From Westiellopsis prolifica IICB1 (GTDB lineage: Bacteria; Cyanobacteriota; Cyanobacteriia; Cyanobacteriales; Nostocaceae), in the NCBI RefSeq assembly GCF_004323185.1, contig NZ_NAPS01000001.1, positions 998,713 through 1,038,419 of the forward strand: a stretch of 39,707 nucleotides of DNA. The letters are read 5' to 3'. The notes beneath the pieces are model-generated. The model was not told where the DNA came from, did not search any database, and saw nothing but the letters and a program-made list of their open reading frames with translations. Positions 5,816 to 10,270 of the stretch are shown piece after piece. Positions within the stretch are counted from its first letter, which is position 1. The number at the start of each line of letters is the position of its first letter. The position numbers were made by a program, and so were the translations under genes.

Positions 5816-6045
5816 TGTTATCCTTTGATTTAGTTAATATTGGGTTAATATTTGTTTACATATGAGTTCATTTCTGGAATTCTATTTACCTATCGAGTAT
5901 TCATAATGTAAGCTTAAGTTTTTTGAAAATTGCTTAGGTTTTAGCTTATAAAATGCATAACATTGATTTAACCGCACCTAATCATAATTTAAGTAATTTT
6001 TGAAAAAAATTGAAGTGTTCTCAAGCATTGACATTGGCAAGAAAA

Positions 6046-6355
6046 AAGTGTGCTACAAAACCGCTCCGAAAAACCTATACAGAACTAGTCAACCATAGAC
6101 AAAGCTGTACAAAGTCGGAGCGTGCAGACTAAGACTTTAGAGGTCTACGATTTTTGAGTCATGACACCTACAGGTGAACGCCAGCTTGTAGACGGCAGTC
6201 GCTCATGGGGGAAACCCCCTGTTCTGCGCGCTGCCTCCACTGTCGAACTCAGTTAAGCAATCAGTAAACAGGTTTATAGCTGTAGTGCTGAGTTCCTAAA
6301 AAGCTCTGAAATCATTGTCGAGGCAAACATTACTTAGTGATAAGGCTGACAGAAT
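6046..6355 (+). ncRNA. Omega RNA (HEARO RNA) of IscB, with presumed 5' guide
   Basis: The region immediately upstream of iscB has the layout of a HEARO/omega RNA. From 5' to 3' there is an 8-bp stem CGCTCCGA (6062-6069) with TCGGAGCG (6115-6122). Next comes a stem GGCAG (6194-6198) with CTGCC (6231-6235) enclosing GGGGG-AAA-CCCCC (6207-6219). Then follows an 8-bp stem GAACTCAG (6245-6252) with CTGAGTTC (6288-6295). The order matches known omega RNAs, where the first stem follows the guide directly. The guide should therefore be the roughly 16 bases before 6062, about 6046-6061 (inferred). The 3' end runs up to, and may overlap, the iscB start at 6356. The RNA directs IscB to DNA complementary to the guide. 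Confidence 0.82.
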
Positions 6356-7642
6356 ATGTCAAATTATGTTTTTCTGATTGATGGCAACCAAACACCGCTT
6401 AATCCAGTTCATCCGGCACAAGCTAGGAAGTTATTGGACTGTGGAAAAGCGGCAGTATTTCGGCGATATCCGTTCACATTGGTTTTGAAACGTGTTATCG
6501 AAAATCCTAACGTGTACCCGCTTACACTCAAAATTGACCCAGGCTCAAAGTTTACTGGAATAGCTCTAGTTACCAACCAAGGTGACGTGATTTGGGCAAT
6601 GGAGTTACAGCATCGCGGTCAACAAATCAAAGATGCGCTACTTCATCGTTTGGCAGTGCGTAGAGGACGAAGAAACCGCAACACTCGTTACAGGCAAGCA
6701 AGATTCCTTAATCGCAAACGTCCGGATGGTTGGTTGGCTCCATCATTGCGGCATAGAGTTCTGACAACTGAAACCTGGGTCAAACGGCTGAAAAAGTTTG
6801 CACCTATTGGTTCCATCGCTCAGGAATTAGTGAGATTCGATACTCAGGCAATGCAAAATCCTGAAATATCCGGTACTGAATACCAACAAGGGACTTTACA
6901 TGGTTATGAGTGTCGTGAGTACTTACTAGAGAAGTGGAATCGTCAGTGTGCTTATTGTGGTGTTAAAGACGTTCCCCTTGAAATTGAGCATATTCACCCG
7001 AAATCAAAAGGCGGTTCTGAGCGCATATCAAACCTTTGTTTGGCTTGTCACAAGTGCAATCAGCGCAAGGGGAACAAAGATGTTAAAGATTTTCTCAAAG
7101 GTAAGCCAGAAGTACTCAATCGTGTTCAAAAACTTGCAAAAGCTCCATTGAAAGATGCAGCATCTGTAAACAGTACTAGGTGGATGCTTTTCAACACTTT
7201 GAAGTCTTTTGGTTTACCTGTGACTACTGGAACGGGAGGACAAACCAAGTTTAATAGAACGCGCTTTGAGTTACCCAAGGCACATTGGATTGACGCTGCT
7301 TGTGTTGGTGTGGTTGAAATCATCAAGCTCGTCACGAACAAAATCCTGAAAGTGAGAGCGACGGGTTTTGGTGGGAGACAGCGTTGCCAGACAGACAAGT
7401 TTGGTTATCCTCAAAAACACCGTCCTTTGCGTCCAATACATGGTTTTTCAACTGGCGACATTGTTCGTGCTGATGTTCCGAAAGGCAAATACGCAGGGAC
7501 TTTCACAGCACGTGTCTGTCCAATGTCGCACGGTTATGGAGAGTTTGTAATTGACAAAAAACGCAGATCAATCAAATTGGAGTACTTAACGCCTGTTCAC
7601 ATGAAGGATGGTTACGACTATGTCTATACCTGTACAAAATGA
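6356..7642 (+). CDS. iscB: IscB RNA-guided nuclease (RuvC + HNH), intact
   Basis: IscB proteins are the RNA-guided endonucleases ancestral to Cas9. This one has 428 residues. The PLMP domain is at the N-terminus (PLNPVHPAQARKLLDCGKA, 14-32). RuvC-I follows with D61 in KIDPGSKFTGIAL, and an arginine-rich bridge helix at about 99-120 (RRGRRNRNTRYRQARF). RuvC-II has E157 in AQELVRFD. The HNH domain spans about 195-245, with paired CxxC knuckles (C198/C201 and C231/C234) around EHIHPKSKGG and N226. RuvC-III has H310 and D313 in HWIDAACVG. The rest (about 330-428) is the C-terminal target/TAM-interacting region. All expected catalytic residues are present, with no frameshift, so activity is plausible. 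The upstream omega RNA is its guide RNA. Confidence 0.95.
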   Translation: MSNYVFLIDGNQTPLNPVHPAQARKLLDCGKAAVFRRYPFTLVLKRVIENPNVYPLTLKIDPGSKFTGIALVTNQGDVIWAMELQHRGQQIKDALLHRLAVRRGRRNRNTRYRQARFLNRKRPDGWLAPSLRHRVLTTETWVKRLKKFAPIGSIAQELVRFDTQAMQNPEISGTEYQQGTLHGYECREYLLEKWNRQCAYCGVKDVPLEIEHIHPKSKGGSERISNLCLACHKCNQRKGNKDVKDFLKGKPEVLNRVQKLAKAPLKDAASVNSTRWMLFNTLKSFGLPVTTGTGGQTKFNRTRFELPKAHWIDAACVGVVEIIKLVTNKILKVRATGFGGRQRCQTDKFGYPQKHRPLRPIHGFSTGDIVRADVPKGKYAGTFTARVCPMSHGYGEFVIDKKRRSIKLEYLTPVHMKDGYDYVYTCTK

Positions 7643-7666
7643 CTAGCAATGTACAGAGGTGTATAG
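7624..7666 (+). repeat. Right-end hairpin overlapping the iscB stop codon
   Basis: CTATAC (7624-7629) pairs with GTATAG (7661-7666) and TGTACA (7631-7636) pairs with TGTACA (7650-7655), with a small bulge between the two helices and a 13-base loop. The iscB stop codon TGA (7640-7642) lies in the loop. Subterminal imperfect hairpins mark the ends of IS200/IS605-family elements, so this is read as the element's right end. Confidence 0.65.
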
Positions 7667-7712
7667 CAATTAAGTTACAGTTTGAAGCCCTACTTTGTAA
7701 AGGAGAAATTGT

Positions 7713-7991
7713 ATGTCGAAGAATATGGAGGATGTATTTGTAGATGTTGTAGAGAATAAACCCAAATCAGTAGTTCAGAAATATCTACAAAATCCCTTTT
7801 CTATTGCATGGTCAAAATTGGCTACATTAACACAACCTGTCCGTAGTCGCACAGCAGAAGCCCAGGAAGACGAGCAATCCGAACAATATAGACCAGATTT
7901 CACCCAAGATCACAGTTTATATCGTCCCTTCACAGACCGCATCGATCCATCGCTTTACTACGCCATCTTCTTTCCTAACCAACGCTTATAG
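7713..7991 (+). CDS. Small hypothetical protein next to pflB
   Basis: A 92-residue soluble protein with no family I recognise. AAAGGAG about seven bases before the ATG gives a good ribosome site. The N-terminal half (EDVFVDVVENKPKSVVQKYL) looks helical, the middle is acidic and low in complexity (AEAQEDEQSEQ), and the C-terminus is aromatic (LYYAIFFPNQRL). The iscB element ends about 45 bases upstream and may have separated this gene from its original promoter. It converges on pflB across a strong hairpin, so it is not in that operon. The coding call rests on the ribosome site and composition. Confidence 0.65.
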   Translation: MSKNMEDVFVDVVENKPKSVVQKYLQNPFSIAWSKLATLTQPVRSRTAEAQEDEQSEQYRPDFTQDHSLYRPFTDRIDPSLYYAIFFPNQRL

Positions 7992-8041: not shown

Positions 8042-10270
8042 CTAAAACCTTTCATGGAATGTCCGCTTAATCACATCAAGCTGCTGTTCCCTGGTCAACT
8101 TAATAAAGTTCACTGCGTAACCAGACACCCGTATCGTTAACTGTGGATATAACTCAGGATGATCCATCGCATCCATCAACATCTCTCGATTCATGACGTT
8201 GACGTTGATATGATGTCCACCATCATGGAAGTATCCATCCAGCATTCCCACGAGGTTGTTAATTCTGTCACCTTCAACTTTACCCAGCGCTGATGGCACG
8301 ATTGAAAAGGTATTAGAAATGCCATCCTGAGAATATTCGTAAGGTAATTTCGCAACCGATGCAAGGGATGCAATTGCACCTTTAGTATCTCGTCCGTGCA
8401 TGGGGTTTGCGCCTGGTGCAAAGGGTTCTCCTGCTTTTCTACCGTCGGGTGTGTTTCCTGTTTTCTTTCCATACACAACGTTAGAAGTAATTGTTAATAC
8501 TGATTGTGTAGGCACAGCGTTACGGTAAGTCTTGTGTTTGCGGAGTTCTTTCATGAACCTGGTAACTAAATGCACCGCAATCTCATCAACTTGATCGTCA
8601 TTATTGCCGTATTTCGGGAAATCTCCTTGAATTTGGTAATCTACTGCTAACCCGGCTTCGTTCCGCAATACTTTGACTTTGGCATATTTAATTGCAGACA
8701 AAGCATCTGTAACTACTGACAATCCTGCAATTCCACAGGCCATGGTACGAAAAACATCGCGATCGTGCAATGCCATTTCTAAGCGTTCGTAACAGTATTT
8801 ATCATGCATGTAGTGGATGACATTGAGGGTATTAATATAGGTTTTTGCCAACCACGCCATCATTCCTTCAAATTTTCTCCATACCTCGTTGTAGTCTAGA
8901 TATTCTGAGGTAATCGGTGCTGTTTCTGGTGCAACTTGTTCGCCAGATTTCTCGTCTTTACCGCCATTTATCGCGTATAGCAGACATTTAGCTAGGTTTA
9001 CCCGTGCGCCAAAAAACTGCATTTGTTTACCAATTCGCATCGCTGAAACACAGCAGGCGATCGCATAATCATCACCCCAGTACAAACGCATCAGATCATC
9101 GTTTTCATACTGAATAGAACTAGTGTCAATCGAAACTTTGGTACAATAGCGTTTAAAGTTATCTGGTAAACGTTCTGACCACAATACTGTTAAATTTGGC
9201 TCTGGTGCTGGCCCCAAATTATACAGTGTATGTAACATGCGAAAGCTAGTTTTTGTCACCAAAGGTCTACCATCTTCCCCCATTCCGCCAATGCATTCTG
9301 TCACCCAAGTCGGATCACCAGAAAACAATTGATTGTAATCAGGAGTTCGCAAGAAACGCACCATCCGCAACTTCATCACAAAATGGTCAATGATTTCTTG
9401 TAATTGCGCTTCTGTAATTAAGTCTTGTCGCAAATCCCGTTCAAAGTAAATATCAAGGAACGTTGAAATTCTGCCAATCGACATCGCCGCCCCATTTTGT
9501 TCTTTTACCGCTCCTAAGTAGGCAAAATAAAGCCACTGTACAGCTTCTTTGGCGTTTGCGGCTGGGTGACTAATATCACAACCATAGCTAGCAGCCATTT
9601 CTTTGAGTTCAAACAGCGCTTTGATTTGATCAGAAATTTCTTCTCGCAGACGAATTGTATCTTCGTCGATCACGTCTAAATCCAAAGATTCTAGCTGCGC
9701 TTTTTTATCTTCAATCAGACTATCAACACCGTATAATGGCACACGCCGATAATCGCCGATAATGCGTCCACGTCCGTAAGCATCTGGTAATCCTGTTATA
9801 ATTCCAGAATGTCGTGCCAAGCGGATTTCGCGAGTATAAGCATCAAACACACCATCATTGTGGGTTTTACGATACTTAGTAAATATCTCTGCGGTTTGCG
9901 GACTTAAGTGATAACCGTATGCTTCTAATGAGTCTTTAACTACACGAATCCCACCAAACGGCATAATTGCACGTTTGAGGGGTTTGTCAGTTTGTAAACC
10001 AATAATTTGTTCGAGTTCGCGGTTAATATAACCCGGATGATGAGAAGTAATGGTCGAAACAACTTCAGTATCAGTATCTAAAATACCTTTTTCTCGCTCA
10101 ATTACCATTAAATCTTTAACTTGATGCCAAAGTTGTTGAGTGCGTTCAGTTGCGTCTGTTAAAAAAGATTCATCGCCTGTATAAGGTGTATAGTTTTGTT
10201 GGATGAAGTCACGTACATTGATTTCTTTCATCCATTTACCAGTTTTAAAATTATGCCATTGTGCCAACAT
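8042..10270 (-). CDS. pflB: Pyruvate formate-lyase (formate C-acetyltransferase)
   Basis: PFL converts pyruvate and CoA to acetyl-CoA and formate during anaerobic metabolism, using a glycyl radical. The 742-residue length matches PflB. The adjacent active-site cysteines are C406 and C407 ([16 protein letters not shown]), and the radical glycine is G717 in the C-terminal RVSGYAV motif. The PFL N-terminal domain ([33 protein letters not shown]) is complete. The start at 10270 gives [13 protein letters not shown], which fits the family. No PFL-activating radical SAM enzyme (PflA) lies next to it, although the protein needs one to be active. The gene is transcribed away from rbcL across a 0.9-kb shared upstream region, so expression in dark anoxic conditions is the natural hypothesis. 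Confidence 0.97.

What the first reader, a model, noticed from the sequence alone, without database searches (positions are those of the whole stretch)
6046..7667. Complete, apparently functional IscB-omega RNA system in a cyanobacterium
All catalytic residues of the RuvC (D61, E157, H310/D313) and HNH (EHIHP, N226) domains are present, the frame is unbroken, and a foldable HEARO RNA lies immediately upstream. No TnpA is present, so an intact nuclease has been kept without an adjacent transposase. That suggests recent mobilisation in trans or retention for a host function.
Basis: partly seen in the sequence, partly recalled or inferred. Interest (0 to 1): 0.8.

Follow-up and report, generated by a model that had tools for sequence, protein, structure and literature searches.

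The report
Mobile IscB element, hairpin-extended guide RNA
This is an intact, recently inserted RNA-guided jumping-gene nuclease (a relative of the ancestor of Cas9) in a cyanobacterium, which is ordinary, except that a second, tiny palindromic repeat sits inside its guide-RNA scaffold, at a spot where the same repeat is found in other guide RNAs of this type.

Summary
ORF 6356-7642 is a full-length IscB, far above the curated cut-off, with the catalytic residues of OgeuIscB. Upstream lies an omega RNA (HEARO), but at 66.8 bits it is below Rfam's gathering score of 83; three close relatives score 85-103. Its fold is backed by compensatory changes in 26 of 48 base pairs. 'Host function' gains no support. 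Lack of an adjacent TnpA is normal for IscB. IscB is common here (60 of 149 genomes, own included), so the element is a new member of a known kind.

The unexpected part is a 46-nt dispersed palindrome at 6192-6237, inside the omega RNA at the 3' base of one hairpin. It occupies the same site in 7 of 81 distinct omega RNAs read, in two types; a protein tree of four carriers forces at least three gains or losses. The other 74 have nothing there. It folds alone and leaves the predicted scaffold in place. I found no earlier report in the library searched.

The parts
6045..6060 (+). presumed 16-nt guide (left flank, host DNA), 5' of the omega RNA scaffold
   Evidence: left flank up to the junction equals the empty site of G001 and G002 and differs by one base in G003; 16-nt guide length taken from PMC9640706 passages
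6061..7687 (+). IscB element (insertion); ends exact to about 2-4 nt because CC(C) is shared by left end and right flank
   Evidence: empty sites in G001-G003; left end CCGCT in 16 distinct elements and right end CAGTT..NNCCC in 15 distinct elements, the window included in both
6062..6122 (+). 5' hairpin of the omega RNA (6062-6068 pairs with 6116-6122), position of the guide adaptor hairpin
   Evidence: alignment A1, helix 1, 94.9% of cells paired
6121..6333 (+). HEARO / omega RNA core (RF02033), 66.8 bits, below gathering
   Evidence: cmscan; 26 of 48 pairs with compensatory change
6168..6191 (+). hairpin that corresponds by order to stem loop 2 of OgeuIscB omega RNA
   Evidence: A1 helix 6; MFE fold; naming by order only, after PMC9640706
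6192..6237 (+). nested dispersed palindrome (about 46 nt, ends exact to 1 nt) inserted in the omega RNA scaffold
   Evidence: absent from 12 of the 14 aligned leaders, same site in L162; same site in 7 of 81 distinct omega RNAs; 6192-6238 folds alone at -24.3 kcal/mol
6356..7642 (+). iscB, 428 aa (PLMP, RuvC-I, bridge helix, RuvC-II, HNH, RuvC-III, C-terminal part)
7621..7668 (+). subterminal hairpin of the right end, overlapping the iscB stop codon
   Evidence: fold of 7619-7690, -12.4 kcal/mol, no shuffle control made
7688..7690 (+). CCC directly right of the element: candidate TAM, present in the empty site
   Evidence: 15 of 15 distinct right ends carry CCC, bases after it not conserved (by eye); empty site ACAAAA|CCCTAC

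Best explanation
A mobile IscB-omega RNA (ISC-type) element without its own transposase that inserted recently into the upstream region of a 92-aa gene. Its omega RNA takes the left-flank sequence as guide, so IscB would cut the empty allele of the same locus (guide plus CCC) and favour keeping or copying of the element (homing or 'peel-and-paste' type maintenance). Shown by comparison: intact ORF, conserved catalytic residues, covarying omega RNA, precise empty site, flank-derived guide match, conserved CCC. Inferred: that the RNA and protein are made, that cleavage happens, that CCC is the TAM, and that a Y1 transposase in trans moves it. Inside the omega RNA a second, tiny palindromic repeat has landed at the 3' base of one hairpin. 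It is predicted to form its own hairpin, leaves the predicted scaffold in place and is probably tolerated rather than needed.
For: IscB cut-off passed; catalytic residues; dN/dS 0.037-0.061 against 7 of 8 relatives (the eighth, L123, had saturated dS; dS of the others 1.35-2.44, so the ratio is rough); omega RNA covariation, 0 of 500 shuffles as high; empty sites in 3 of 3 same-genus genomes searched and no element at the related place in G010; guide plus CCC intact in G001 and G002, one mismatch in G003, only the interrupted copy in the own genome; scattered close kin; same palindrome at the same omega RNA site in 7 of 81.
Against: No expression or cleavage data. The omega RNA misses Rfam's gathering score. 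No other copy of this element in the genome: the three other IscBs are 55-59% identical, so transposition within this genome is not shown. Four Y1 transposases are present but none is linked to it. The two letters before CCC at the right end often equal the last two letters of the left flank (6 of 13 elements with both ends read, by eye), which a plain Y1 insertion would not predict.
Confidence: 0.85

Rival explanations
1. Retained for a host function: the IscB has been domesticated at this locus, for example as regulator or defence, and no longer behaves as a mobile element.
For: Intact ORF under purifying selection with no adjacent TnpA; single copy in the genome; it sits about 25 nt upstream of a gene start.
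Against: Absent from the orthologous site in the three same-genus genomes searched; the purifying selection is measured between elements at different places, so it fits selection on mobile copies; lack of TnpA is the norm (passages).
Confidence: 0.06
2. A dead or dying element: the palindrome has ruined the omega RNA, so the nuclease is intact but unguided.
For: HEARO score below gathering; palindrome within the folded core, next to the hairpin whose counterpart in OgeuIscB stacks on the pseudoknot hairpin; three of the seven carriers (L196, L198, L200) have no IscB match beside them, and the carrier IscB in L162 lacks part of the HNH motif.
Against: Predicted scaffold helices survive and the insert folds alone; the window, L119 and L247 carry the insert with an open full-length IscB frame; G176 holds four carriers at four places, so insert-bearing elements or their RNAs seem to have multiplied.
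Confidence: 0.12
3. The palindrome is not an insertion but an old optional hairpin of the omega RNA that most lineages have lost.
For: Same site and nearly the same sequence in two types of omega RNA.
Against: The palindrome occurs outside omega RNAs in many genomes (pattern in 29 of 388 genomes; 27 of 30 copies brought in as loci show no HEARO match at E <= 0.01); the protein tree needs 4 changes, at least 3 forced by well-supported branches, and no bootstrap tree has one.
Confidence: 0.12

Closest known systems
IscB of ISC / OMEGA elements (OgeuIscB, structure 7xht)
   Same: domain order, catalytic residues, upstream omega RNA with 5' guide, candidate 3' TAM
   Different: shorter (428 against 496 aa in the 7xht chain), the difference lying both before residue 109 and after residue 319; candidate TAM CCC instead of NNRR (passages); about 46-nt palindrome in the omega RNA
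HEARO RNA, Rfam RF02033
   Same: whole model matched; near relatives L116, L117 and L086 over the cut-off
   Different: the first 52 model positions are replaced by an unlike 5' hairpin and the nested palindrome falls in the core; the score is below gathering
Small dispersed or palindromic repeats of bacteria (REPs, PMC3733652 passages seen; cyanobacterial SDR and STRR repeats and rickettsial palindromic elements, recalled)
   Same: short, palindromic, dispersed, found in varied contexts, some inside genes
   Different: no member identical to this palindrome was identified by me in print; a host site inside an omega RNA was not found in the papers searched

Membership tests
IscB | curated family model NF040563 above cut-off | tested here: met
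   467.9 bits against 175
IscB | RuvC and HNH catalytic residues | tested here: met
   D61, E157, H212, H310, D313 align with D61, E193, H247, H340, D343 of OgeuIscB
IscB | N-terminal PLMP-type domain and Arg-rich bridge helix | tested here: met
   residues 4-115 align with the N-terminal part of OgeuIscB; RRXRR PF14239 over 5-179; domain names recalled and from PMC9640706
IscB | RNA-guided DNA cleavage | not testable with these tools
   needs biochemistry
HEARO / omega RNA (RF02033) | significant match over the whole model directly upstream of the nuclease | tested here: met
   6121-6333, model 1-211, E 9.7e-13
HEARO / omega RNA (RF02033) | score at or above Rfam's gathering score | tested here: not met
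   66.8 against 83; relatives L116 102.7, L117 97.4, L086 85.0. So it is a homologue of HEARO, not a listed member by Rfam's own rule
HEARO / omega RNA (RF02033) | conserved fold supported by compensatory change | tested here: met
   26 of 48 pairs, 97.7% of cells paired, 0 of 500 shuffles as high
ISC / IS200-IS605-like mobile element | precise empty site, no long target duplication | tested here: met
   G001, G002, G003
ISC / IS200-IS605-like mobile element | own Y1 transposase (TnpA) in the element | tested here: not met
   the only ORF of 80 aa or more on the element's + strand is iscB; four Y1_Tnp elsewhere in the genome, no relative of these in 108 loci. Not a defining feature of IscB elements, few of which lie beside TnpA
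ISC / IS200-IS605-like mobile element | subterminal hairpin at the right end | tested here: met
   7621-7668; no shuffle control

The most novel reading that the evidence does not exclude
Cyanobacterial omega RNAs are a recurrent landing site for tiny mobile palindromes: one palindrome family has entered the same scaffold position (3' base of stem loop 2, beside the pseudoknot hairpin) several times in different IscB subfamilies without stopping the element, so that a mobile repeat rides inside the guide RNA of an RNA-guided mobile element and marks a natural, insertion-tolerant position of the scaffold.
Probability: 0.45. Interest if true: 0.55.

Novelty: new variant of a known kind. Interest (0 to 1): 0.4.

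Why it matters
IscB with omega RNA is the studied forerunner of Cas9, and its large RNA limits its use as a compact editor. A natural series of omega RNAs with extra hairpins shows which scaffold positions may take foreign sequence. It is also a clear case of one mobile element nested inside the guide RNA of another. The exact empty sites give a ready-made natural target (guide plus CCC) to test whether such elements home into their own empty alleles.

Tried and rejected
Considered and rejected: (1) chance HEARO-like fold: rejected by covariation. (2) Pseudogene: rejected by the open frame and dN/dS; the single 'TAG' in the nearest same-genus copy is the stop after DGYDYA that L119, L162, L088, L116 and L120 also have, a few codons before the window's stop. 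(3) Copies elsewhere in the genome as proof of recent activity: none close. (4) A TnpA partner found by proximity: none (only the four own TnpAs served as queries, the 108 loci include some duplicates and many have only 1.5-kb flanks). (5) The palindrome as an omega-specific motif: rejected, most sampled copies lie elsewhere. (6) A first pattern for insert-bearing omega RNAs gave 197 mostly false candidates because its left anchor was loose, and its output was cut; it was replaced by the anchor, which found 7 filled and 74 unfilled; one search repeated it and listed the 74. That anchor misses some omega RNAs (L117, L122, L123 and L163, insert-free in A1, are not among the 81) and would miss very long inserts. 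(7) A direct repeat flanking the element: suggestive in 6 of 13 elements (by eye), left open. Searches without result: IscB with cyanobacteria and HEARO, 0 papers; the search for omega RNA with repeat insertions listed 3 papers, none of which by title and abstract start is on the matter. The 2009 HEARO paper, the 2008 paper on very small mobile repeats of cyanobacteria and the 2021 OMEGA paper were not seen; they are recalled.

Selection effects: four of the seven carriers (L196, L197, L198, L200) came from a search for the palindrome itself, so 7 of 81 is not a population rate; the other three (window, L119, L162) came from IscB searches. The 20 stretches were chosen mostly for length, and the omega RNA loci are the best-scoring ones, which disfavours RNAs with inserts. 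Of the copies found in 388 genomes only 30 were brought in as loci; of the further 20 stretches fetched, the three from G176 are longer versions of carriers already known (L196-L198), and the other 17 were not put through Rfam, though they were among the loci scanned by the anchor.

Full report
Observation. The ORF at 6356-7642 (+) is 428 aa and unbroken. It passes the IscB family model at 467.9 bits against a cut-off of 175, holds RRXRR and HNH domains, and aligns with solved IscBs. E193 and H247 are named as catalytic in PMC9640706 (passages). Against 8 relatives the ORF shows dN/dS of 0.037-0.061 in 7; in the eighth dS was saturated, and in the others dS is 1.35-2.44, so the ratio is rough though clearly low.

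Omega RNA. At Rfam's gathering score the whole window has no match. With an E-value threshold HEARO matches 6121-6333 over the full model, 66.8 bits, E 9.7e-13, gathering score 83. Fourteen leaders of the subfamily (A1; 14 of the 16 extracted, L119 left out for its long insert and L145 because its leader end was not aligned) share a fold of 48 pairs, 26 of them with a change on both sides that keeps the pair; 97.7% of cells pair, no shuffle of 500 reaches the observed values, and sliding the partners by 1-3 columns drops pairing to 33-43%. The structure was derived from this same alignment, which favours it over slid versions. So the RNA is real; the low score goes with two features, an unlike 5' hairpin and a nested insert (alignment; relatives without the palindrome, L116, L117 and L086, reach 102.7, 97.4 and 85.0 bits, L086 with another insert).

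Element and insertion. The left flank next to the insertion was found in G001, G002 and G003 (same genus) and G010 (same family) among 59 genomes searched, own included, and the right flank beside it. In G001-G003 the two flanks meet directly...CTACAAAACCCTACTTTG.... G010 has related flanks with other sequence between them and no element. Relatives show a left end CCGCT (window 6061) in 16 distinct elements and a right end CAGTT..NNCCC in 15 distinct elements, the window included in both; CCC is in all 15, the letters after it vary (read by eye; 39 rows examined, the others being duplicates or rows whose alignment stopped short of an end). The element is therefore about 6061-7687, the left flank is the guide, and CCC is a candidate TAM. 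The 21-letter site AAGTGTGCTACAAAACCCTAC is present exactly in G001 and G002, with one mismatch in G003, not within 3 mismatches in G010, and in the own genome only as the interrupted left half. The insertion lies about 25 nt upstream of the start of ORF 7713-7991.

Distribution. The own genome has three other IscBs at 55-59% identity (L004 and L006 are two pieces of one), 5 HEARO hits over the cut-off and 8 weaker ones at E up to 1, this one among them, and four Y1 transposases. Relatives at E <= 1e-60 occur in 60 of 149 genomes, own included; 45 loci were found in named genomes, the closest being in Brasilonema, Scytonema, Microseira, Pelatocladus, Microcoleus, Calothrix and unclassified cyanobacteria. 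HEARO occurs in 59 of 120 genomes of the order, own included, at E <= 1e-6. Cyanobacterial HEARO is already in print: a Limnospira indica paper mentions HEARO RNAs among its regulated RNA genes and leaves them undiscussed (PMC8400943, passages), and PMC9755519 uses a HEARO reference named Ama-1-1 (that this is Arthrospira maxima is recalled). PMC9755519 also states that only a few HEARO nucleases lie beside TnpA. No relative of the four own TnpAs appeared in 108 loci. The first part of the finding is thus ordinary.

The nested palindrome. Aligned with relatives, the window has about 46 extra nt at 6192-6237, a near-palindrome; 6192-6238 folds alone at -24.3 kcal/mol, and the predicted fold of the 298-nt leader keeps the 5' hairpin, the central stem, the hairpin before the insert and the long hairpin after it. 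The core is a dispersed repeat: with up to one mismatch it occurs 6 times in the own genome and 0 times in the reversed control; a longer pattern occurs in 29 of 388 genomes, with no match in the reversed control of any genome listed. Of 30 copies brought in as loci from that search, 3 lie in HEARO RNAs, namely the window and two in G176. The copies met led to omega RNAs in G176 (C25, C26, C248, all matched by HEARO at 59.6-74.7 bits) and in Scytonema RU_4_4 (C67, by motif; the Rfam search gave no HEARO match for it at E <= 0.01). L162 (G176, HEARO 52.5 bits) and L119 (Scytonema RU_4_4, a longer compound form, likewise without a HEARO match) carry it too. All four exact copies in G176 are in omega RNAs; a one-mismatch copy there (L199) is not. 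Of the 20 stretches around copies fetched, four are omega RNAs (L196, L197, L198, L200) and 16 are not recognisable as such.

Same site, different hosts and types. With an anchor on the 3' side of the linker, 81 distinct omega RNAs could be read in the loci held: 7 carry the palindrome directly after the same hairpin, 74 have nothing there and none has another insert there. The carriers belong to two types, one with CTGTCG and one with CTCTAGAA after the site. In an IscB tree of 24 rows the four carriers with an IscB gene (window, L119, L162, L247) need four changes, at least three of them forced by well-supported branches, and 0% of bootstrap trees have one; the nearest relative of the window, L116, lacks it. 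Many inner branches of that tree are weak. Separate insertions, or exchange of this RNA segment between elements, are both possible. By order of helices the site is the 3' base of stem loop 2, which in OgeuIscB stacks on the nexus pseudoknot hairpin (PMC9640706, omega RNA architecture section); this is inference, no structure was modelled. Three carriers (L196, L198 and L200) have no IscB match in the stretch held (L246, L248 and L200), and L162 has an open frame with a damaged HNH motif; the window, L119 and L247 have open full-length frames.

Other inserts. Long omega RNAs, picked for length, show other palindromic inserts in other loops: the loop of the long pseudoknot hairpin (L295, L297, L300, L302), the first hairpin (L304), the small hairpin before the central stem (L296) and the 3' end (L301) (read by eye). 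L086 has one in that small hairpin too. IscB ORFs carry in-frame repeat inserts as well: 35 aa in the own-genome copy L004, 37 aa in L116, 27 aa in L120 (same gene as L087), 19 aa in L088, and a longer insert with stops in L145. So these elements collect small repeats; what is special here is one palindrome at one site.

Mechanism and verdict. Most likely the element was moved by a transposase in trans, took its guide from the new left flank, and now marks the empty allele for cutting, which favours its spread and persistence. The palindrome is most likely a passenger that the scaffold tolerates. Shown: intact parts, fold, empty site, guide match, recurrence of the insert. Not shown: expression, cleavage, TAM, transposition, effect of the insert. 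The element is a new member of a known kind; the insert makes it a modest new variant.

Noticed in passing
L004 (own genome C1:254410-255786), L116, L120, L088: In-frame repeat inserts of 19-37 aa in iscB genes; L116, L120 and L088 carry theirs at the same point, directly after the RuvC-III motif (residues 317/318), which looks like a second hotspot; L120 and L088 share a similar insert, L116 has another.
   Followed up: partly
L295, L297, L300, L302, L296, L304, L301, L086: Other palindromic or MITE-like inserts in other loops of cyanobacterial omega RNAs.
   Followed up: partly
right ends of relatives; window 7684-7690: The two letters before CCC at the right end equal the last two letters of the left flank in 6 of 13 elements with both ends read, hinting at a short direct repeat or a footprint of the joining step.
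   Followed up: no
L005 (own genome C8:581956) and L008 (C1:165958): Proteins with stop-to-stop frames of 376 and 364 aa that match only the N-terminal part of IscB and seem to lack HNH, resembling IsrB; L008 has a weak HEARO match directly beside it (L023).
   Followed up: no
L016, L017 (own genome), L246, L248, L200: Omega RNAs without a nuclease ORF in the stretch held, likely non-autonomous elements.
   Followed up: partly
window 7713-7991: A 92-aa gene, conserved in G001-G003, without a Pfam or NCBIfam match, whose upstream region is interrupted by the element about 25 nt before its start codon; a ribosome-binding-like AAAGGAGAAA remains.
   Followed up: no
window 8042-10270 (-): A full pyruvate formate-lyase (TIGR01255, 1239 bits) next door.
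   Followed up: no
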